In this document: one piece after another, positions 3,058-51,919 of the stretch
How positions within the stretch are numbered: position 1 is the first letter of the stretch
Layout of the letters: every line of letters begins with the position of its first letter
Source of the DNA: Bdellovibrionales bacterium Ga0074139
GTDB taxonomy: Bacteria; Bdellovibrionota; Bdellovibrionia; Bdellovibrionales; Bdellovibrionaceae
Reading direction: 5' to 3'
Length of the DNA stretch: 64,000 nt
Assembly: GCA_001464795.1 (NCBI GenBank)
Contig: LNEB01000015.1
Span: forward strand, 62,001 to 126,000
Program-made: the position numbers and the translations under genes
The notes under the pieces: generated by a model
Seen by the model: the letters and a program-made list of their open reading frames with translations, nothing else
Told to the model about the DNA's origin: nothing
Database searches by the model: none

Positions 3058-3812
3058 GTTCAGAAATACTCAAAGATCCTTTTGATGAAAGCACAGTTTT
3101 CAAAAGCTCTTTAAAGCTTTCACTGGGTGCCCATATTTTTGTTCTTCTGTTTTTTACAGTCAAAGCACTGATTATGCCTGATGCTGCACTTGATTATTCT
3201 TCAGCCATTCGTGTGGATATTGTCGCATTGCCTGAAAAACTTGATCCTAATCAAATTGAACTTGTGAAACCAGAACAGAAAGCAGAAAAACCTCAAGCTC
3301 AACCTCAGCCAAAAGAAGTGGTTCTTCCTAAAAAAGAGCCGGACGCTATTTCTTTAAAAAAATCGAAATCAAAACAAGAAGAAGCATTAGACCGACTCAA
3401 AAAAATGAGTGCTATTGACAGAATTAAGAATGAAGTGGAATCCAGCCAGAAAAAAGCCAATGCTTTAGAAAAGGTTTCACAAGTAAAAGGTAATATTTTA
3501 GCAGCTGGTACATCACTGACTGGACTTAATAAGCTTCAACATGATCAGTATATTTCAGACCTTGATGCAAAAATAAAAAGAAATTGGACAAAGCCACGCT
3601 GGATTGAAAAAGAATTAAAGGCCCGTGTACGAATTAAAATTGATCAAAATGGAACTTTAATTTCAAAGGTTCTTGAAATCAGCAGCGGAGAGCCTGCTTA
3701 TGATGATTTAGTTTTGGAAACAATTGATCGCTCGGCCCCTTTTCCACCACCACCTGAAAAATTTATTAATATTGCTGCGGTACGTGGAATTTTAATAGGC
3801 TTCCCAGATTAA
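3054..3812 (+). CDS. tolA: TolA-like TonB C-terminal domain protein
   Basis: The 252-aa protein has one N-terminal TM helix (about residues 24-44) and a Lys/Pro/Glu/Gln-rich spacer (about 75-145). A TonB/TolA C-terminal domain follows (about 165-250, [18 protein letters not shown], then [20 protein letters not shown] and AVRGILIGF at the end). It would span the periplasm and link TolQR energy to the outer membrane. It is shorter than E. coli TolA (about 420 aa), as is common outside enterobacteria. It is called TolA rather than TonB because it lies between tolR and tolB. Confidence 0.88.
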
Positions 3813-3831
3813 CACCGACAAAAGAGGTTTT

Positions 3832-5208
3832 ATGAAATTATTATTTATCTTTATTCAATTGCTGCTTAGCGCTTCTTTATGGGCTCAAAGCACAACCGGT
3901 GAAGTTTTCATCAAAATGGGAGAAGCACAAACAAAAAAAAGTTTACTTGCACTGCCTGACTTTCAATCCTTGGGTGGGGCCAAACCCACATCCCAAAATA
4001 TTGCTGTTGCTAATGAACTTTTCACAGTCATTAAAAATAACCTAGAGGTCTCGGCTTATTTTCAATTGATGGACAAAGCTGCTTTTCTAGAGGACACAAC
4101 CAAAACAGGACTAAAACCTATTCCCACCGAAGCCAATGGTTTTAATTTTTTGAGCTGGCAGCAGATTGGGACAGAATTTTTAATTCGTGCAGGTTATTCA
4201 GTCATTGGTAATCAAATCAATCTTGAGGCTTACGTTTATCATGTTCCCAAGGCCCGCCTTGTTTTCGGAAAAAAATATTCTGCACCCATTAATGGGGTTA
4301 GAAAAATGGCCCACACTTTTACAAACGATATCTTGGATTCTTTAACTGGAAAAACGGGAATGTATTTGTCACGAATTGTTGTGGCCAGTGATCGTGGCGT
4401 ATCACCCTCAAGAGAAATCTTTGTCATGGACTGGGACGGAGCTAACGTAGAAAGAATTTCGAACCATCGCTCGATTTCTTTGTCACCTGCTTGGTCTAGA
4501 GATGGAAAAAAAGTGGCCTATACATCTTACGTAAAGCGCGGAAGAACCACTTTAAGAAACGCTGATATGTTTATCTATGATTTAGCCACAGCCAAACGCA
4601 ATGTTATTTCTTTTCGCCAAGGTCTTAATTCAGGAGCCAGTTTCTCACCTGATAACTCTATTTTTCTCACGATCTCACAGGGAACCTCTCCTAATATTTA
4701 TCAAATCAATCAAGCCGGTGATATTGTTGCGAAGGTAACTAACGGACCTACGGGAGCCATGAACGTCGAGCCCTCCGTTAGCCCCGATGGAAAAAAAGTG
4801 GCCTTCAGCTCTGACCGTGCAGGACGAACCATGATTTATGTTATGGATTCAAACGGATCCAATGTGAAAAGAGTTACCTTCGCAGGACAATTTAATGCCT
4901 CACCCGCGTGGTCACCTGACGGAAAAAAATTAGCGTTTGCAGGTCAAACTGGGTCCAACTTTGATATTTTTATTATGGATGTTGATGGTCAGAATATGAA
5001 ACGACTGACCTCTGCAAAAAGATCCAACGGAAGACCCGCCAACAACGAAGATCCCACTTGGTCACCTGATGGTCGCTTTGTGATGTACACAAGCGATAGA
5101 ACAGGCAAAAGTCAGATTTATATTTCCACCGAAGATGGTTCCGATGAGCGTCGCATCACGATTGATAGCGCAAACTATTTTAAGCCCAAATGGAGTCAGA
5201 ATTTATAG
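3832..5208 (+). CDS. tolB: Tol-Pal system beta-propeller protein TolB
   Basis: A signal peptide (residues 1-19, cut after LWA) precedes the TolB N-terminal domain (about 20-165). A six-bladed WD40-like propeller with repeated SPDGKK and SDR motifs (about 175-455) completes the protein. TolB is periplasmic and links TolA and Pal. The length, 458 aa, is slightly above the usual 430. No pal or cpoB gene follows in this window; a cyclophilin takes that place, so Pal must be encoded elsewhere. Confidence 0.94.
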
Positions 5209-8285: not shown

Positions 8286-9034
8286 ATGAATTTTTCTTTA
8301 AATTTTTTGTAGCCTAAAACAAAAACTGCATAAGAAATAATTAATAAATATAAAAAATTAAATACAGAAAAAAGACTTATTATTCCAGACATAACAGAGT
8401 GGCTAAGTTGAATGGAGTGAGTAAATGGCAATAAATAAGAAACAACCCATAATGGTAAGTTAAGAGTCTGGACAGGAAAAAAGATCCCTGAAATCAAAAT
8501 CATAGGAATCAGCAAGACAAGATTAGGAATTTTTTGTTTTCCAAGAAAATTAGAATTTGCAACAATAGATCCCAAAGCAGAAAACAAAAAGATTGAAATA
8601 AATAAAAGCAAAACTAACGGTATAACAAGAAAACTTTCAACAACACCCATTGCAAGACCTACTACACAAGTGATTGCACAACTCAATAGACCTTTAAATG
8701 CAGAAGATAGAGTTTCTCCTAAGTAGATATCGAGCTTCTTGATAGGTGTGATCAACCATGATGCATAAACTTGTTTTTCATTCATGCGATAATTTTGAGT
8801 GTTGAAAGAATCAATAAAGGCAACGACGGCCGATGAAACACTTAAGTATCCAATAAAAAAGTACTCAAGGTAGCTTTGTCCATTGATGCTATTAATGTAT
8901 TGGCCGATTCCATAACCAAAAGCAGACAAGAACAAAAAAGGCTCAAGTAGCATATAAAAAACTTGAGAAATCCAATTTTTCTTAAAAACAAAAAAGTTAT
9001 GAGAAACTATTTTCAAATACCCTTTTTTTGTCAT
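8282..9034 (-). CDS. ABC-2 type transporter permease
   Basis: The 250-aa protein has about six hydrophobic segments and the ABC-2 family layout (FVFKKNWISQVFYMLLEPFL at the N-terminus, ISGIFFPVQTLNLPLWVVSY near the end), like NodJ or polysaccharide/drug exporters. Its start overlaps the ATPase gene by 4 bp, so the two form one exporter. The substrate is unknown. The partner ATPase has lost key catalytic residues, which makes active ATP-driven export doubtful. Confidence 0.85.
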   Translation of the reverse strand: MTKKGYLKIVSHNFFVFKKNWISQVFYMLLEPFLFLSAFGYGIGQYINSINGQSYLEYFFIGYLSVSSAVVAFIDSFNTQNYRMNEKQVYASWLITPIKKLDIYLGETLSSAFKGLLSCAITCVVGLAMGVVESFLVIPLVLLLFISIFLFSALGSIVANSNFLGKQKIPNLVLLIPMILISGIFFPVQTLNLPLWVVSYLLPFTHSIQLSHSVMSGIISLFSVFNFLYLLIISYAVFVLGYKKFKEKFI

Positions 9035-42632: not shown

Positions 42633-43979
42633 ATGATTGATTCACTATCTAAAGGAAACCCAGAACAGAGCGCTTGTTTGCAAAGATGGGCTTATCCTGT
42701 CATCAAATACAGTGGTGGACAAGTTCGTACCTGTTGCCGAACATTTCCAAACGAAGTGATTTCTGACGAAATGCTTTTAGAGCTTGGTATTAATGCATTT
42801 ATCAACTCGCCAGAACTTCAACAAAGACGTCTTGAAATGTTAAGCGGGATCAGACACCCTTCTTGCAAATCCTGCTGGAAGCTTGAAGTGACCGGAGTTA
42901 AAAGCTTTCGCAGCAAAGTCGAAGATTTCACTCGGTACATTCATGAACGTGAGGGTGGGCCCAATGACTTTTCTGAAATTGTTCGCAACAAAGAAAAGTA
43001 CTTAATGTCGACAAAGCCCCAAATGTTAGAAATTCAAATTGATAACATTTGTGACTTAAAATGCATTTATTGTAACGAAGAGTACTCATCACGTTGGGAA
43101 TCCGAAAATAAGATGGATGCAGGCTATACCCCTTCTGCTCATACGATGACGAAAGACTCGTCGCCCCTTTTTAAGAAAACCTTCTGGAGTTGGTTTCAAT
43201 CGATTAGCAGTGATCTTAAATGTCTTAATCTTATTGGTGGTGAGCCAACCCTAAGCCCTAAGTTTTATGAAATATTAGACAAGCTTTTATCGGATGAAAT
43301 CCAATGCAGTCCTCACCTTGTCATTAGTATTGTTTCTAATTTTAATTCCAATGAGTCTCGTTTTAATAAATTCACATCCTATCTTTCTCGACTATCAAAA
43401 AAATACACTCTGTCTATCGATGCCTCCTGTGAGGCTCTCTCAAAAAGGGGTGAGTTCATACGCCAAGGATTAGACTGGGAAATTTTCCAAAAAAACGTAA
43501 ACTCCATGGTGGATGTGATGCGTTCAATTCCATCTGAAAATAGAAATCATAATTTTGGAATTCAAGTTACAAATAATATTTTAAGTGTTTCAAGTATAAA
43601 TGACTTCCTTAATTGGGTTCATTCGATAGTAGAATTAAAAAAACACCCCATCCATCTAAGGCAAAATATCGTTTCATATCCTGATTATCTGTCGCCGATT
43701 ATATTAACATCTCATTTTTCAAACTATTATTTCGACACTGCAAAACTCATAAGACATAAGGCAGATCAGGCCATTGACTATGGTCACATCAGTAACTGGT
43801 TATCCTTTGCAGACTTTCTAGATTCCATTGGGAAAAGTATTCTTACTCAACAACCCAATAAAAACTCTCAAAAGAGATTCTTAGATTTTGTGCAAAAAAG
43901 TGAGCTCAAAAGAGGCATCAATTTTATCGAGATTTATCCCGAATATTCTGATTTTATAGATTACTGTAAAAGACTTTAA
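42633..43979 (+). CDS. Twitch-domain radical SAM protein
   Basis: The 448-aa protein has the radical SAM CxxxCxxC motif in DNICDLKCIYCNEE (Cys 140, 144, 147), binding the [4Fe-4S] cluster, followed by a barrel with LNLIGGEPTLSPKFYEIL. The N-terminal part holds more Cys (VRTCCRTF, HPSCKSCWKLE), probably extra metal or cluster ligands. These twitch-type enzymes modify peptides or small molecules. The second enzyme at 48052 shares this plan. It begins 1 bp after the DUF2878 gene. Substrate is unknown. Confidence 0.82.
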   Translation: MIDSLSKGNPEQSACLQRWAYPVIKYSGGQVRTCCRTFPNEVISDEMLLELGINAFINSPELQQRRLEMLSGIRHPSCKSCWKLEVTGVKSFRSKVEDFTRYIHEREGGPNDFSEIVRNKEKYLMSTKPQMLEIQIDNICDLKCIYCNEEYSSRWESENKMDAGYTPSAHTMTKDSSPLFKKTFWSWFQSISSDLKCLNLIGGEPTLSPKFYEILDKLLSDEIQCSPHLVISIVSNFNSNESRFNKFTSYLSRLSKKYTLSIDASCEALSKRGEFIRQGLDWEIFQKNVNSMVDVMRSIPSENRNHNFGIQVTNNILSVSSINDFLNWVHSIVELKKHPIHLRQNIVSYPDYLSPIILTSHFSNYYFDTAKLIRHKADQAIDYGHISNWLSFADFLDSIGKSILTQQPNKNSQKRFLDFVQKSELKRGINFIEIYPEYSDFIDYCKRL

Positions 43980-44841: not shown

Positions 44842-44934
44842 GGAGAAGTGGGTGAGTGGCTTAAACCAAGCGTTTGCTAAATGCTCGAACTTCCAAAAGA
44901 GGTTCCGTGGGTTCAAATCCCACCTTCTCCGCCA
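44842..44934 (+). tRNA. tRNA-Ser(GCT)
   Basis: The 93-nt plus-strand gene has acceptor GGAGAAG pairing with CTTCTCC, an anticodon loop TTGCTAA (GCT), a long variable arm (about TCGAACTTCCAAAAGAGGTTC), T-arm GTGGGTTCAAATCCCAC and CCA. The last 7 bases plus following 4 recur beyond the fic gene (see direct repeat), a typical integration-site signature. Confidence 0.94.
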
Positions 44935-44938
44935 ATTT
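44928..44938 (+). repeat. Direct repeat at tRNA-Ser 3' end (attL-like)
   Basis: Tccgccaattt occurs here, covering the end of the tRNA-Ser gene including its CCA, and again at 46461-46471, right at the stop of the lipase-maturation-factor gene. The two copies enclose exactly the fic gene and its operator region (about 1.5 kb). Integrases use tRNA 3' ends as attachment sites and leave such direct repeats. No integrase is present, so this could be a relic. Confidence 0.55.
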
Positions 44939-44949
44939 CTTTTATACCC

Positions 44950-46278
44950 TTAATTTTTACTAGTAGGAAACTTAGCTCCCCTTACGAAAACGTACTTCTT
45001 ACCTTTTTTTACTTTTTCTAAAATACTTTTCTCCTCAAGGCTCGTCAAATCTGATCTTGCAGTTTCATATGCTACTTTATTTCTATTTTTATAAGTTTGC
45101 AGATCAATTTCCATCGAAGGACTTTTTTGTAATAAAGAAATTATGTCTAATTGCCGGGAATTTATTTCCTGAGAACTTACTAATTTTTCTTTTAAGGAAT
45201 TAGCTTCTTTTTGTTTTCGTTTTAAATATTTAATAAAATCTTCGATGGCATTTTTAGCTAATTTCAATTTGTAAGAAAGAAAGTATGTGATGTCTCCTTC
45301 GTCGCTTTCAACATACTTAAAAGCCCTATAATAGCCAGGTTTCCATTCCTGCTTTTTTATCTGTAGTGATATGGGCAAAAATTTAAACATCCAATAATTT
45401 TTTTTAATTAGAAACCAATAAAATAAAGCCCTTGCAAGCCTTCCGTTTCCATCTACAAATGGATGAATATATCCAATTAAAAAATGTAATATTGAAGCTT
45501 TTACGAATGGATGGGTATAGCTATCCTCATCCCCCTCATTAATAAATTTGTAAAGCTGTTTTAGTTGAACTTTCGCCTCGCTTATTTTGGGTGGAATATG
45601 CACTAGTTCCCCTGTAGGATTTTCTACTACTACAACCTCATCTTCATCTGTTCGAAAGCAACCCTCATCTTCTTTTTGCTCTAACGTATCAACAGTTAAA
45701 ATTTTATGAAGCTCAAACAGGAACTCATCTGACAATTCTCTATTTTTCCAATTTTCTAGTTGGGCCATGGCCACATAGTTATTTAGTATCATTTGCTCAT
45801 GTTTGTTTTTGGGCTTTAATTGTTGCTCAATCATATTTTTGGCAACTTTTCTCGTGGTATTAGCGCCCTCGATTTGGCTAGATGATATTGCTTCTTCAAT
45901 TAATCCATTAATAACCAGTCTATCCTTAGACGTATCATCCGGCATACCTTCGCCCGTTACAATGGTACCTGAAGAATGAGAGTCTATGAAACTTAATTGC
46001 TTCATATGTTCTTTTGTTAAAAAGATTGAGAAATGATTGGCATTTTCATCTACTACACCAATATTTTCTCTTCCTGTCATTCGAGCCATTTTGAGAAAAG
46101 TCCAGGCCGCCTCGGGCGTTATATTTTGTGGCATAGGCTGGTACCTAAATCTTTCCCAATGCAGATATTCAGAATTAGCCTTTTTAACTAACTCTTGCAT
46201 CTCTTTAGACGAAAATAGCTCTATAAGCTCTCTTGGGTTCTGTAAGGATTTTTTCCAATCTGGTAACTTCTTACTCAT
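44950..46278 (-). CDS. Fic-domain protein with N-terminal inhibitory motif
   Basis: The 442-aa protein has an intact Fic motif HPFVDGNGRLAR (residues 272-283; catalytic His 272) and is likely an AMP-transferase. Residues 133-138 (SSQIEG) match the [S/T]xxxE[G/N] inhibitory helix placed before the Fic core, which marks class II, self-inhibited Fic proteins. A C-terminal winged-helix-like segment (DIISLLQKSPSMEIDLQTYK, EEKSILEKVKKGKKYVFV) suggests DNA binding. Two inverted repeats cover the region just upstream of its start. It sits inside the putative insertion at tRNA-Ser. Confidence 0.9.
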   Translation of the reverse strand: MSKKLPDWKKSLQNPRELIELFSSKEMQELVKKANSEYLHWERFRYQPMPQNITPEAAWTFLKMARMTGRENIGVVDENANHFSIFLTKEHMKQLSFIDSHSSGTIVTGEGMPDDTSKDRLVINGLIEEAISSSQIEGANTTRKVAKNMIEQQLKPKNKHEQMILNNYVAMAQLENWKNRELSDEFLFELHKILTVDTLEQKEDEGCFRTDEDEVVVVENPTGELVHIPPKISEAKVQLKQLYKFINEGDEDSYTHPFVKASILHFLIGYIHPFVDGNGRLARALFYWFLIKKNYWMFKFLPISLQIKKQEWKPGYYRAFKYVESDEGDITYFLSYKLKLAKNAIEDFIKYLKRKQKEANSLKEKLVSSQEINSRQLDIISLLQKSPSMEIDLQTYKNRNKVAYETARSDLTSLEEKSILEKVKKGKKYVFVRGAKFPTSKN

Positions 46279-46284
46279 ATACTA

Positions 46285-46311
46285 CTAATTACTACTAATA
46301 GTAGTAATTAG
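46285..46311. promoter_or_regulatory. 12-bp perfect inverted repeat directly before fic (operator)
   Basis: Ctaattactact (46285-46296) and agtagtaattag (46300-46311) form perfect arms with a 3-bp spacer (AAT). The element lies 7-33 bp upstream of the fic start, over the ribosome-binding region, where no Shine-Dalgarno is seen. Auto-repression by the Fic protein's winged helix is inferred. Confidence 0.7.
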
Positions 46312-46351
46312 CAATCAAATTAGTTTGTCGCAACGTAAGTCATTGAAACTT

Positions 46352-46387
46352 CTCAACTACTAATGCTAGTAGGTATTAGTAGTTGAG
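46352..46387. promoter_or_regulatory. 13-bp perfect inverted repeat upstream of fic (second operator)
   Basis: Ctcaactactaat (46352-46364) and attagtagttgag (46375-46387) are perfect arms with a 10-bp spacer. The inner 8 bases (ACTACTAA) recur in the site at 46285-46311, indicating that one protein binds both. A shorter copy, cagtagtagg, follows at about 46388. Confidence 0.65.
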
Positions 46388-46460
46388 CAGTAGTAGGACA
46401 AATTAATGGTTCTGGACATTAGTTTGTTTTAGGCAGACGTTTGAAACTCAGCTACTTCCG

Positions 46461-46471
46461 TCCGCCAATTT
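46461..46471. repeat. Direct repeat downstream of fic region (attR-like)
   Basis: This is the second copy of tccgccaattt, the end of tRNA-Ser(GCT) at 44928-44938. It abuts the stop codon of the lipase-maturation-factor gene. By chance an 11-bp match within 2 kb is unlikely. Confidence 0.55.
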
Positions 46472-47979
46472 TAATCTAAAATCCGAACAACTTCATTTCT
46501 CCACCATCGACCCGTACTTTTCAGCTCATCTACGTTTGTAAACTCTTGCTTTACTAGCTGCAGTCTTACGAATTTTGGTGGGGCTTCAGGAAATGGATTT
46601 TCTTTTAATAAATTTAAGACCGCTTGATTACCTTCCAGTAATTTTTGTGGAAGATCTTGAACGCTTAAACGACGTGCAAAAAAAGCCAAAGCAGATCGAT
46701 CTATTTTATCAATTGGATTAGCTGCAAACGCTTGCACAAGACCCAGGTAAAATATTTGGTGATCAATTCTGGACTGAAAAGGAGCGTAGTTCCCTGCTAT
46801 TTGAGTCTCACTTGAAGGCTTATAAATAAATTCGTAGTTTTTCCAATTTTCATTATCGTTGGATCCTTGAACCACAACATCATGGCGATTTTTGGGTAAG
46901 TGACTAAAAAGATCGTAAGGAAAACTCAATTTTGCCATCAACGCAAGACGAGTGGCTTTTATAAACAAATCAGGAAGAACAGGATGAGTTTTTTTAAAGG
47001 TCCAAGTCACATCACAAAAACTAGCTTGTGGTGGTCTAGTTACCATATTCACTATCCAAAAACTTCCAATTAGACTCAGAAAAATCATCGCCGGATAAAT
47101 AATTATTTTTTTTGCTCTTAGATTCTGAGGACCATAAAATTTTTCTCGAGGCTTTATTTTTTTTAAGACAGGAAACGTTTTAAGATCCAAATCGTTTAAA
47201 ATCGCAAGACACATCACAATCACTAGGAATTGAAAATATCCATAATTGCCAGAAAAAAATAATCCCAGCATAAACAAGGTTAATATATAAAAAATAGCCT
47301 TTCTAAAAGCTGTTAACTTTTTGGGTATAAAAATAAAGAAGGGAATCAAGCACTCCACAACAAGAGTTATGATAGCAAAAATCTGATGAAATAAATCAGG
47401 AAGCTGATACAACCACCAAGAGATTCGGTTGGGCATGGGCTGATTCAGTAAATAATTTTTTACAAAAAGCAGGTTCTGCCAACTTGGATCATCACTGACT
47501 AATTTTACATAACCCATCATGAAAAAAAGCCGAAACACTAGAAACTGAATGAACAGTAAAACGTATTTGCTGTCGGTGCGTAAGCAAGTCAGAAGAATGG
47601 TGCAAAAGCCCATTTCCATTAGCAGAAGATCCCAGATATAGTGAAAGTAACTTAATCCCACTGCACAAATGGAAGTAAATAAGATCCAAGTACATAATGA
47701 TATCCAGGTTTTGTGAACTCCTAGCAGCATTAAAGACGAAAAGACGACTCCTAGTAAACAAAGAATCTGTATAAAAATATTGGAATCATTCAACCACAGC
47801 AAAGTAAATGGATAAAGTTTTAGAGTTTTTGCAGCGACAGCTAACCCATCGGGCCCAATGATTCCAGGCAACTGGTAAAATAGGCTAATAAATGCAATGA
47901 GGTAGATCAGTCCTATTCCGCGAATTATCAGCTGAGCCAATTGAGTGTTAGAATAAGGATTGATTTGCATTGCTGTCAT
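46471..47979 (-). CDS. Lipase maturation factor family protein
   Basis: The 502-aa membrane protein has about eight TM helices in the first 330 residues and the family hallmark block MMGYVKLVSDDPSWQNLLFV, NQPMPNRISWWLYQLPDLFH. A soluble C-terminal domain (NYAPFQSRIDHQIFYLGLVQ, VRLQLVKQEFTNVDELKSTG) is also typical of LMF proteins. LMF1 in animals is a chaperone for lipases; the role of bacterial members is unknown. It runs towards the fic cassette. Confidence 0.86.
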   Translation of the reverse strand: MTAMQINPYSNTQLAQLIIRGIGLIYLIAFISLFYQLPGIIGPDGLAVAAKTLKLYPFTLLWLNDSNIFIQILCLLGVVFSSLMLLGVHKTWISLCTWILFTSICAVGLSYFHYIWDLLLMEMGFCTILLTCLRTDSKYVLLFIQFLVFRLFFMMGYVKLVSDDPSWQNLLFVKNYLLNQPMPNRISWWLYQLPDLFHQIFAIITLVVECLIPFFIFIPKKLTAFRKAIFYILTLFMLGLFFSGNYGYFQFLVIVMCLAILNDLDLKTFPVLKKIKPREKFYGPQNLRAKKIIIYPAMIFLSLIGSFWIVNMVTRPPQASFCDVTWTFKKTHPVLPDLFIKATRLALMAKLSFPYDLFSHLPKNRHDVVVQGSNDNENWKNYEFIYKPSSETQIAGNYAPFQSRIDHQIFYLGLVQAFAANPIDKIDRSALAFFARRLSVQDLPQKLLEGNQAVLNLLKENPFPEAPPKFVRLQLVKQEFTNVDELKSTGRWWRNEVVRILD

Positions 47980-48051: not shown

Positions 48052-49500
48052 ATGCGTTCAAAAATGCCTGATCTCAATAAAATCTCTCCCAGCTTTTGTG
48101 CCGCCAAATGGTTAAACGTGACTATTAGGTTACAAAATGGCCATAACCATTCTTGTCATCATCCTGTCCCTCATAAAATAGATCTCGAAGAAGTTAAGAA
48201 AAATCCAGGTGCCCTTCATGATACTCAATTCAAAAAAGAACAGCGAAAGCTAATGCTCGAAGGCACTCGCCCACCCGAGTGTGTTTATTGCTGGAAAGTA
48301 GAAGATCTACCAGGCGATCAGATCAGTGATCGTTTTATAAAATCAAATGAGTTCTGGGCTCGACCCTATATCAATGAAATAGCAAAAAAAACCTGGGATC
48401 AGGCCTCACCTCCGACTTACTTAGAAGTGTCTTTTTCAAATCTGTGTAATTTTAAATGTGCCTATTGCTTTCCTGACTCTTCATCAAAATGGATGAGCGA
48501 GATTCAAGAGTTTGGTCCCTACCCCACTTCCGATCAATACGGAACTATGAAATACGAAGGTAAAGATAGTAACATTCCTTTGCCGGATGATAATAATCCT
48601 TACGTTGATGCTTTTTGGAAATGGATTCCAGATGTATTTACAAATCTGAAGGTCCTTAGGGTTACTGGTGGAGAGCCTTTGTTATCTAAAGATTGTTTGA
48701 AGCTGATTGATTTTATCAAACAAAATCCAAACCCTGATTTGAACTTTTCGCTGAATTCTAATCTTGGTGTTCCCAGTCACTTAGTTGAAAAAATGATGCT
48801 GAATTTAACAGGGCTTATATCAGAGAAAAAAATTAAAAACAGCCAGATATTTACAAGCCTGGACACATGGGGATCGCATGCCGAGTATCTTCGATTCGGA
48901 CTGGATCTGGATTTGTGGAAAAAAAATCTCGATATCGTGCTTCAACATTCTGCAAAACTAGAAGTCAGAATTATGGTGGCCTTTAATGCTTTAAGCGTAT
49001 TTCGTTTTAAAGAGTTCTTAAAGTTCGTAATGAAAAAAAGAAAGCAGTACAAAACAGCTCCACTTGTAGACATTTCTATTTTGCAATTTCCTGATTTTTT
49101 AAATCTTCTTCTTCTTGAAGAAAAAGACAAAGAGCACATTTATGAATGTGTTCAGTATATGGAAGCTCATTCCGATAAAAATGTTCCCTATGGATTTAAA
49201 ATGATGGAAATTCTAAAACTAAAAAGAATATGGGAATATTCAAAAATAAAAAAATCAGACGAAGAACTTTTAAGACTTCGAAAAGATTTTATGAAATATG
49301 TAACTGAATACGACCGAAGAAAAAAAGTGGATATTTTTGAAATGATCCCAGAAATTTATCCAGCCATGAAAAAATGGCAGCAAGAACAAAACCTAGCTTT
49401 AAAAACGATGGATTTTAAAAAGAACATCGATTGGCAATTGCGACACAATCTTCCAGTTCGATTCAGAAATTTAACTTCTAAAGTGCTTGATACCTTTTAA
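48052..49500 (+). CDS. Twitch-domain radical SAM protein
   Basis: The 482-aa protein has the radical SAM motif SNLCNFKCAYCF (Cys 132, 136, 139) and an N-terminal CVYCW (Cys 77, 80) plus C16 and C35 that probably ligate further metal or clusters. The barrel shows LRVTGGEPLLSKDCLKLIDF. It shares the plan of the enzyme at 42633 (N-terminal CxxCW, then CxxxCxxC) and is probably a paralogue with a different substrate. Its 3' end overlaps the convergent gene at 49471 by 30 bp. Confidence 0.82.
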   Translation: MRSKMPDLNKISPSFCAAKWLNVTIRLQNGHNHSCHHPVPHKIDLEEVKKNPGALHDTQFKKEQRKLMLEGTRPPECVYCWKVEDLPGDQISDRFIKSNEFWARPYINEIAKKTWDQASPPTYLEVSFSNLCNFKCAYCFPDSSSKWMSEIQEFGPYPTSDQYGTMKYEGKDSNIPLPDDNNPYVDAFWKWIPDVFTNLKVLRVTGGEPLLSKDCLKLIDFIKQNPNPDLNFSLNSNLGVPSHLVEKMMLNLTGLISEKKIKNSQIFTSLDTWGSHAEYLRFGLDLDLWKKNLDIVLQHSAKLEVRIMVAFNALSVFRFKEFLKFVMKKRKQYKTAPLVDISILQFPDFLNLLLLEEKDKEHIYECVQYMEAHSDKNVPYGFKMMEILKLKRIWEYSKIKKSDEELLRLRKDFMKYVTEYDRRKKVDIFEMIPEIYPAMKKWQQEQNLALKTMDFKKNIDWQLRHNLPVRFRNLTSKVLDTF

Positions 49501-51445: not shown

Positions 51446-51919
51446 TTAGTAAAGCGTTCTATCGCCCTTAGCGGTCCAGGCTTTAAAAACCTTTAAAGCT
51501 TCGTCGTGGGAAATTTGTGTCATTGTGATTTTACGCTGCTCGATGGGTTTCGGAACCTCTTGATAAATAAAATCATCATCGAAGTCGATATCAGCAGCAT
51601 CTTTTCGAGTGTTCGCATAATAAATTTTATCAAGCCTGGCCCAGTAGATAGCAGCTAAACACATGGGGCAGGGTTCACAGCTTGTGTAAATCTCGGCTCC
51701 ACTTAAATCAAAGCAGCCTAAATTTTGTGAAGCTTTTCTGATGGCCTGAACTTCGGCATGGGCTGTGGGATCATTGGTGGATAAAACCTGATTCCAACCT
51801 TCACTGATGATTTTTCCGTCTTTGACGATCACAGCCCCGAAAGGACCTCCGTGACCGGCGGTCATATGTTCATGGGAAAGGTCGATGGCTTTTTTCATAA
51901 AATCAGCTGGCTTTTTCAT
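51446..51919 (-). CDS. guaD: Guanine-deaminase-type nucleoside deaminase
   Basis: The 157-aa zinc enzyme has the CDA motifs HAEVQAI (metal His and catalytic Glu) and CEPCPMC (two metal Cys). DFDDDFIYQEV and a C-terminal KGDRTLY ending match the guanine deaminase subfamily. It converts guanine to xanthine and ammonia. tRNA-specific adenosine deaminase TadA is the alternative, but the YANTRKDAADIDFDD region and C-terminus favour guanine deaminase. Confidence 0.85.
   Translation of the reverse strand: MKKPADFMKKAIDLSHEHMTAGHGGPFGAVIVKDGKIISEGWNQVLSTNDPTAHAEVQAIRKASQNLGCFDLSGAEIYTSCEPCPMCLAAIYWARLDKIYYANTRKDAADIDFDDDFIYQEVPKPIEQRKITMTQISHDEALKVFKAWTAKGDRTLY

What the first reader, a model, noticed from the sequence alone, without database searches (positions are those of the whole stretch)
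44928..46471. Fic cassette apparently inserted at the 3' end of tRNA-Ser, flanked by an 11-bp direct repeat
Seen: tccgccaattt covers the 3' end of tRNA-Ser at 44928-44938 and recurs at 46461-46471, at the stop of the next gene. Only the Fic gene and its operator repeats lie between. Known: tRNA 3' ends are usual integrase attachment sites. Inference: a minimal 1.5-kb mobile cassette carrying a single AMP-transferase with no integrase, moved in trans or by a lost integrase.
Basis: partly seen in the sequence, partly recalled or inferred. Interest (0 to 1): 0.6.

Follow-up and report, generated by a model that had tools for sequence, protein, structure and literature searches.

The report
Lone Fic defence gene beside tRNA
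A single gene for a protein-modifying enzyme related to known anti-virus defence genes sits alone between two copies of the end of a transfer-RNA gene; related bacteria carry similar lone genes beside other transfer-RNA genes, which suggests that this gene travels by itself and uses those sites as landing places.

Summary
The repeat alone is modest evidence: 5 of about 105 other tRNA 3' ends also have a repeat of at least 11 bp nearby.

Comparative evidence adds more. The tRNA-Ser/tadA interval is an integration hotspot: adjacent in genus g2, but holding different inserts in each genus mate, one with a tyrosine integrase beside this tRNA. Neither genus mate has this fic. In a sister Fic subfamily 6 of 24 genes in the phylum face a tRNA 3' end (about 1% expected). 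One is a fic-only insertion with a same-genus empty site. Two fic-only units carry 42-bp and about 55-bp flanking repeats. DNA similarity between copies at unrelated sites covers only operator plus fic.

"Insertion at a tRNA hotspot" is well supported. "Mobile cassette moved in trans" is plausible but not separated from "remnant of a larger element": no exact empty site for the window was found, and no excision data exist. Closest known kind: integrase-less, att-flanked (cis-mobilizable-like) elements, here reduced to one defence-type gene.

The parts
44842..44934 (+). tRNA-Ser(GCT), target site
   Evidence: ARAGORN
44928..44938 (+). proximal copy of tccgccaattt: last 7 nt of the tRNA plus 4 nt (putative attachment site)
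   Evidence: the same 11 bp follows the fic-free tRNA-Ser of genus mate G002
44950..46278 (-). Fic gene, 442 aa, SoFic-like, class II (inhibitory motif SSSQIEGA, catalytic motif HPFVDGNGRLAR); stop codon 11 nt from the proximal repeat
   Evidence: Pfam Fic 2.9e-18; PADLOC SoFic 3.3e-48
46272..46392 (.). palindromic ACTACTAAT repeats at the fic promoter (putative operators)
   Evidence: inverted repeats I1, I9; direct repeat D15
46461..46471 (+). distal copy of tccgccaattt (putative attachment site)
46471..47979 (-). lipase-maturation-factor-like (LMF1) gene; its stop codon touches the distal repeat; first gene of the old flank
   Evidence: absent from both genus mates
51446..51919 (-). tadA-like deaminase, far border of the variable interval (next to tRNA-Ser in G003)

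Best explanation
The 1.5-kb unit is a horizontally acquired, solitary SoFic-type gene with its own promoter and operators, inserted at the 3' end of tRNA-Ser(GCT), an integration hotspot. The 11-bp repeats are most likely the two hybrid attachment sites of a tyrosine-recombinase event whose enzyme was supplied in trans by an element using the same tRNA end. The unit supplies a copy of the tRNA 3' end, so insertion leaves the tRNA intact. The Fic protein is probably an autoinhibited AMP-transferase that turns toxic on phage infection (abortive infection), its level held down by an autoregulated promoter. Shown: anatomy, hotspot, absence from genus mates, sister fic-only insertions at tRNA ends. 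Inferred: the recombinase, movement in trans, the defence role, autoregulation.
For: Hotspot: tRNA-Ser adjacent to tadA in G003 but separated by 6.5 kb here and 11.7 kb in G002; integrase beside the same tRNA in G001. Own genome uses tRNA ends in the same register: tRNA-Pro(GGG) element with integrase and 14-bp repeat ccgaccaatttttt. Sister Fic subfamily: 6 of 24 face a tRNA 3' end, tail about 2e-7 at 1.1%. Empty/occupied pair G004/G023. Fic-only units with 42-bp (G037) and about 55-bp repeats (G096). The fic stop lies 4-16 nt from the tRNA end or repeat in four tRNA cases. DNA similarity between copies at unrelated loci covers only operators plus fic; host families interleave in the Fic tree.
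Against: No exact empty site for the window. The repeat is only 11 bp, and 5 of about 105 other tRNA ends have one as long. 21 other members of the window's own Fic subfamily are not at tRNAs. Cassettes at different sites share no terminal sequence, so no single recombinase is indicated. tRNA-end duplications without any gene occur in relatives.
Confidence: 0.45

Rival explanations
1. Remnant: a larger integrase-bearing element (prophage, satellite or mobilizable island) integrated at tRNA-Ser with fic at its edge; all but fic and the two att sites was later deleted. The repeats are genuine att sites, but the present unit is a leftover and not a mobile cassette.
For: G001 carries such an element at the same tRNA. 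In G047 a close Fic abuts a tyrosine integrase. The nearest relative of the window Fic (L097) sits near the far end of a multi-gene segment bounded by copies of tRNA-Arg. CIMEs are described as decayed elements (PMC5704250). Streptococcus satellite phages carry Fic-like genes near their ends.
Against: Several independent sites hold fic alone, with the junction 4-16 nt from the fic stop, which repeated decay would not be expected to give; the 42-bp repeat of G037 is still exact; no trace of integrase or phage genes in the window unit.
Confidence: 0.3
2. Coincidence or tRNA-end duplication: fic came in by another route (homologous or illegitimate recombination at a permissive site), and the 11-bp repeat is chance or an older tyrT/rtT-like duplication of the tRNA 3' end.
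For: Repeat only 11 bp; tRNA 3' ends are duplicated without gene insertion behind tRNA-Gln in G033, G036 and G045 and behind tRNA-Ser in G027; cassettes share no end sequence; the whole interval up to tadA is variable.
Against: Both copies lie at the functional borders of the unit (11 nt from the fic stop, and at the stop of the next gene); sister fic genes are strongly enriched at tRNA 3' ends; G096 shows an about 55-bp repeat at a CDS 3' end.
Confidence: 0.2

Closest known systems
Cis-mobilizable elements (CIMEs) and integrase-less islands, e.g. ICESt1-related CIMEs and the 15 Dehalococcoides ssrA islands without an integration module (PMC5704250, PMC3146451)
   Same: flanked by att-like direct repeats at an RNA gene 3' end; no integrase or transfer genes; neighbours of integrase-bearing elements at the same site
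   Different: one gene only; the repeat is short; the same gene type recurs alone at several different tRNA genes; no parent element identified
SoFic (Sofic) anti-phage gene (PMC12249575; PADLOC model SoFic)
   Same: Fic core, catalytic and inhibitory motifs, PADLOC SoFic match over most of the C-terminal 300 residues
   Different: 442 aa against a 361-position model; far below the NCBIfam SoFic equivalog cut-off; no downstream AS1-like small gene
Integron gene cassettes
   Same: single gene moved by a recombinase encoded elsewhere (from general knowledge)
   Different: no integron platform or cassette array seen; insertion at tRNA 3' ends; carries its own promoter
tRNA-targeting prophages, satellites and integrative elements
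   Same: target site and duplicated tRNA 3' end
   Different: no integrase, replication or packaging genes

Membership tests
Cis-mobilizable element (CIME) | flanked by attL and attR direct repeats at a site used by an integrase | tested here: inconclusive
   11-bp repeat at the tRNA-Ser 3' end; the site carries an integrase element in G001; the core itself is not proven
Cis-mobilizable element (CIME) | no integration or transfer genes inside | tested here: met
   only fic between the repeats
Cis-mobilizable element (CIME) | excision or transfer with help of a resident element | not testable with these tools
   needs excision PCR or an integrase assay
SoFic (class II Fic AMP-transferase) | catalytic motif HPFx[D/E]GNGR and N-terminal inhibitory motif [S/T]xxxE[G/N] | tested here: met
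   HPFVDGNGRLAR and SSSQIEGA in the translation; Pfam Fic
SoFic (class II Fic AMP-transferase) | match to SoFic family models | tested here: inconclusive
   PADLOC SoFic 163 bits, but NCBIfam SoFic equivalog 64.7 bits against a cut-off of 550
SoFic (class II Fic AMP-transferase) | small antitoxin gene AS1 downstream (reported for EcSofic) | tested here: not met
   15 bp between the fic stop and the tRNA; no small ORF
SoFic (class II Fic AMP-transferase) | protects against phage | not testable with these tools
   needs a phage challenge
Phage satellite or prophage | encodes an integrase and phage-related genes | tested here: not met
   only fic is present
Integron gene cassette | attC site and an integron platform | not tested
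   no attC search was run; no array of cassettes is visible in the neighbouring genes

The most novel reading that the evidence does not exclude
SoFic-like genes form a class of solitary gene cassettes (operator plus one defence gene, 1.1-1.5 kb, no recombinase) that spread between bacterial families and land preferentially at tRNA 3' ends, moved by the integrases of resident elements: a free-riding defence cassette outside integrons.
Probability: 0.3. Interest if true: 0.72.

Novelty: new variant of a known kind. Interest (0 to 1): 0.5.

Why it matters
If lone defence genes can move as one-gene units using other elements' integrases, they spread more cheaply than island-based models assume and would be missed by searches that require an integrase. 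The bacteria here appear to be Bdellovibrio relatives. The pattern gives concrete, testable loci: one empty/occupied pair within a genus and two units with long flanking repeats.

Tried and rejected
E. coli genomes hold no DNA relative of a plasmid fic of this type, so no strain-level empty-site test was possible there. Viral-contig scans with both Fic subfamilies found no relative. The 12-bp repeat at tRNA-Asp in G035 was at first counted as att, but it lies in the TGGCGGA operator array at the fic start and is not used as evidence. The 14-bp repeat in G080 lies inside a glyoxalase-like gene and does not extend: treated as chance. The 16-bp repeat in G295 extends into diverged repeated coding DNA and is not cleanly att-like. 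The 42-bp repeat of G037 was challenged: a relative of the same family (G045) has repeats of tRNA-Gln 3' end plus terminator without fic, so that repeat could predate the fic insertion. A third copy of the core near tadA was looked for and not found. No paper linking Fic genes with tRNA insertion sites was found in the held library.

Full report
OBSERVATION. ARAGORN places tRNA-Ser(GCT) at 44842-44934 +. tccgccaattt covers its last seven bases plus four (44928-44938) and recurs at 46461-46471; these are the only two copies in the window, with 0.06 expected. The genome has five copies and ARAGORN finds no tRNA around the other three. Between them lie the Fic ORF 44950-46278 (-), whose stop codon is 11 nt from the proximal copy, and a palindrome-rich promoter region. 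The distal copy touches the stop codon of the LMF1-like gene 46471-47979 (-). A control limits the weight of the repeat alone: none of 26 other tRNAs of this genome has an 11-bp repeat overlapping its 3' end within 2 kb, but 5 of about 105 other tRNA ends in this and related genomes do (the 106 ends counted there include the window's own, whose locus copy was cut before the distal repeat).

THE SITE IS A HOTSPOT. Synteny with genus mate G002 is lost right after the tRNA and resumes at the tadA-like gene (window 51446-51919). The interval is 6.5 kb here and 11.7 kb of unrelated genes in G002. In G003 (genus g2) tRNA-Ser is about 40 bp from tadA; in G022 the contig ends 85 bp after the tRNA in what looks like the end of the same gene (by eye). 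In genus mate G001 the same tRNA is followed by a tyrosine integrase, an HTH_17 gene and a family A DNA polymerase gene. Neither genus mate has this Fic (G001 is only 67% complete). G002 keeps tccgccaattt as a single copy behind its fic-free tRNA. The window's genome also carries an integrase-bearing element at tRNA-Pro(GGG), flanked by a 14-bp repeat in the same register (ccgaccaatttttt), with the integrase next to the distal copy. So tRNA-end integration with short repeats is at work in this genome. An exact empty site (tRNA directly followed by LMF1) was not found; LMF1 itself is absent from the genus mates, so the LMF1-FemAB block is probably an older insert at the same place (inference).

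SISTER CASES. Several Fic homologues sat against tRNA 3' ends. A survey of the order (141 genomes) and the phylum (369 genomes) gave 24 close members of a 350-aa Fic subfamily. Six face a tRNA 3' end: tRNA-Gln in G037, G023 and G073, tRNA-Asp in G035, tRNA-His in G095 and G042. None faces a 5' end, and none of 14 less similar Fic genes is near a tRNA. With 31 tRNA 3' ends per roughly 2,800 genes (estimated) the expected fraction is about 1%, so the binomial tail is about 2e-7. Not all six are certainly independent, but both orientations and three tRNA species are involved. In genus g3, G004 has tRNA-Gln directly followed by a small VF530-like gene (named by recall), while G023 has tRNA-Gln, then fic alone, then the homologue of that gene: an empty/occupied pair. 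In G037 a 42-bp exact repeat (TCCA of the tRNA plus its whole terminator) flanks a unit of about 1.27 kb holding only fic. In G096 an imperfect repeat of about 55 bp, one copy being the 3' end of a coding gene, flanks fic alone. In four tRNA cases the fic stop is 4-16 nt from the repeat or tRNA end. Between copies at unrelated loci the DNA similarity covers only the operators (about 50-155 bp upstream) and fic up to about its stop, and host families are interleaved in the Fic tree. The closest relative of the window's own Fic (43%, L097) lies between tRNA-Arg(ACG) and a 39-bp, 97% copy of that tRNA's 3' half. Against this, 21 other members of the window's Fic subfamily were not at tRNAs, so the enrichment is shown for the sister subfamily only.

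FUNCTION. The protein has the class-II inhibitory motif (SSSQIEGA) and the catalytic motif HPFVDGNGRLAR, matches Pfam Fic and the PADLOC SoFic model (3e-48), but is far below the NCBIfam SoFic equivalog cut-off. Solved relatives by sequence are FICD and other Fic proteins. EcSofic is reported to act by AMPylation-driven abortive infection, with a small downstream antitoxin AS1 (PMC12249575); there is no room for such a gene here. The promoter repeats (ACTACTAAT palindromes) suggest autoregulation; the sister subfamily has an equally placed but different operator (TCCGCCA..TTGACA..TGGCGGA). Defence function and autoregulation are inference.

MECHANISM. Two readings keep the repeats as att sites: insertion of a fic-only unit by an integrase in trans, and decay of a larger element. 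Recurrence of fic-only units with the junction at the fic stop favours the first; an integrase next to a close Fic in G047 and the known path of CIME formation (PMC5704250) favour the second. The lack of any shared terminal sequence among cassettes argues against a single dedicated recombinase. A third reading, coincidence or a tyrT-like tRNA-end duplication, is kept alive by repeats without genes behind tRNA-Gln and tRNA-Ser in relatives.

PLACE AMONG KNOWN SYSTEMS. Integrase-less, att-flanked islands at RNA genes are known (CIMEs; 15 Dehalococcoides ssrA islands without an integration module, PMC3146451). What is unusual is reduction to one defence-type gene and recurrence of that gene type at several tRNA genes. 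From contig lengths I believe G004, G007 and G036 are Bdellovibrio exovorus JSS, B. bacteriovorus Tiberius and HD100 (recalled from memory, not looked up), so the window would come from another genus of that family.

Noticed in passing
L176, L178, L179 (tRNA-Gln, genus g6), L017 (tRNA-Ser), L187 (tRNA-Gln, G045), about 20-240 bp downstream of the tRNA: A stretch of about 170-240 bp behind the tRNA ends in a copy of the tRNA's 3' end; in L178 and L017 it folds unusually well (z -4.2 and -3.2) and includes the complement of the tRNA T-arm side; in G045 tRNA end plus terminator is repeated. It recalls the E. coli tyrT/rtT repeats (from memory); L176, L178 and L187 gave no Rfam hit except the tRNA.
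   Followed up: partly
upstream of fic in L126-L141 and L156-L163: Strongly conserved promoter/operator of the sister Fic subfamily: TCCGCCA-TTGACA-TGGCGGA-TGGCGGATAAT just before the start codon, often in two sets.
   Followed up: partly
G000:C12:2000-11002 (L206), integrase 3647-4762 (-), tRNA-Pro(GGG) 8927-9003 (-): Integrase-bearing element of about 5.3 kb in the window's own genome with 14-bp direct repeats at the tRNA 3' end; four further related integrases in the genome.
   Followed up: partly
L083 595-4538 (genus mate G001): Prophage-like genes (tyrosine integrase, HTH_17, family A DNA polymerase) directly behind the same tRNA-Ser.
   Followed up: partly
L097 9204-9242 and 9346-9367: Two successive copies of the 3' part of tRNA-Arg(ACG) behind a Fic gene in a Deltaproteobacteria MAG, suggesting stacked insertions at that tRNA.
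   Followed up: partly
L213 7275-9498 (G047): A close Fic gene stands tail to tail with a tyrosine integrase, about 40 bp apart; no att repeats found around the pair.
   Followed up: partly
window 42633-43979 and 48052-49500: Two radical-SAM-like genes on the + strand, one on either side of the tRNA-Ser/fic region; both only weakly match Radical_SAM.
   Followed up: no
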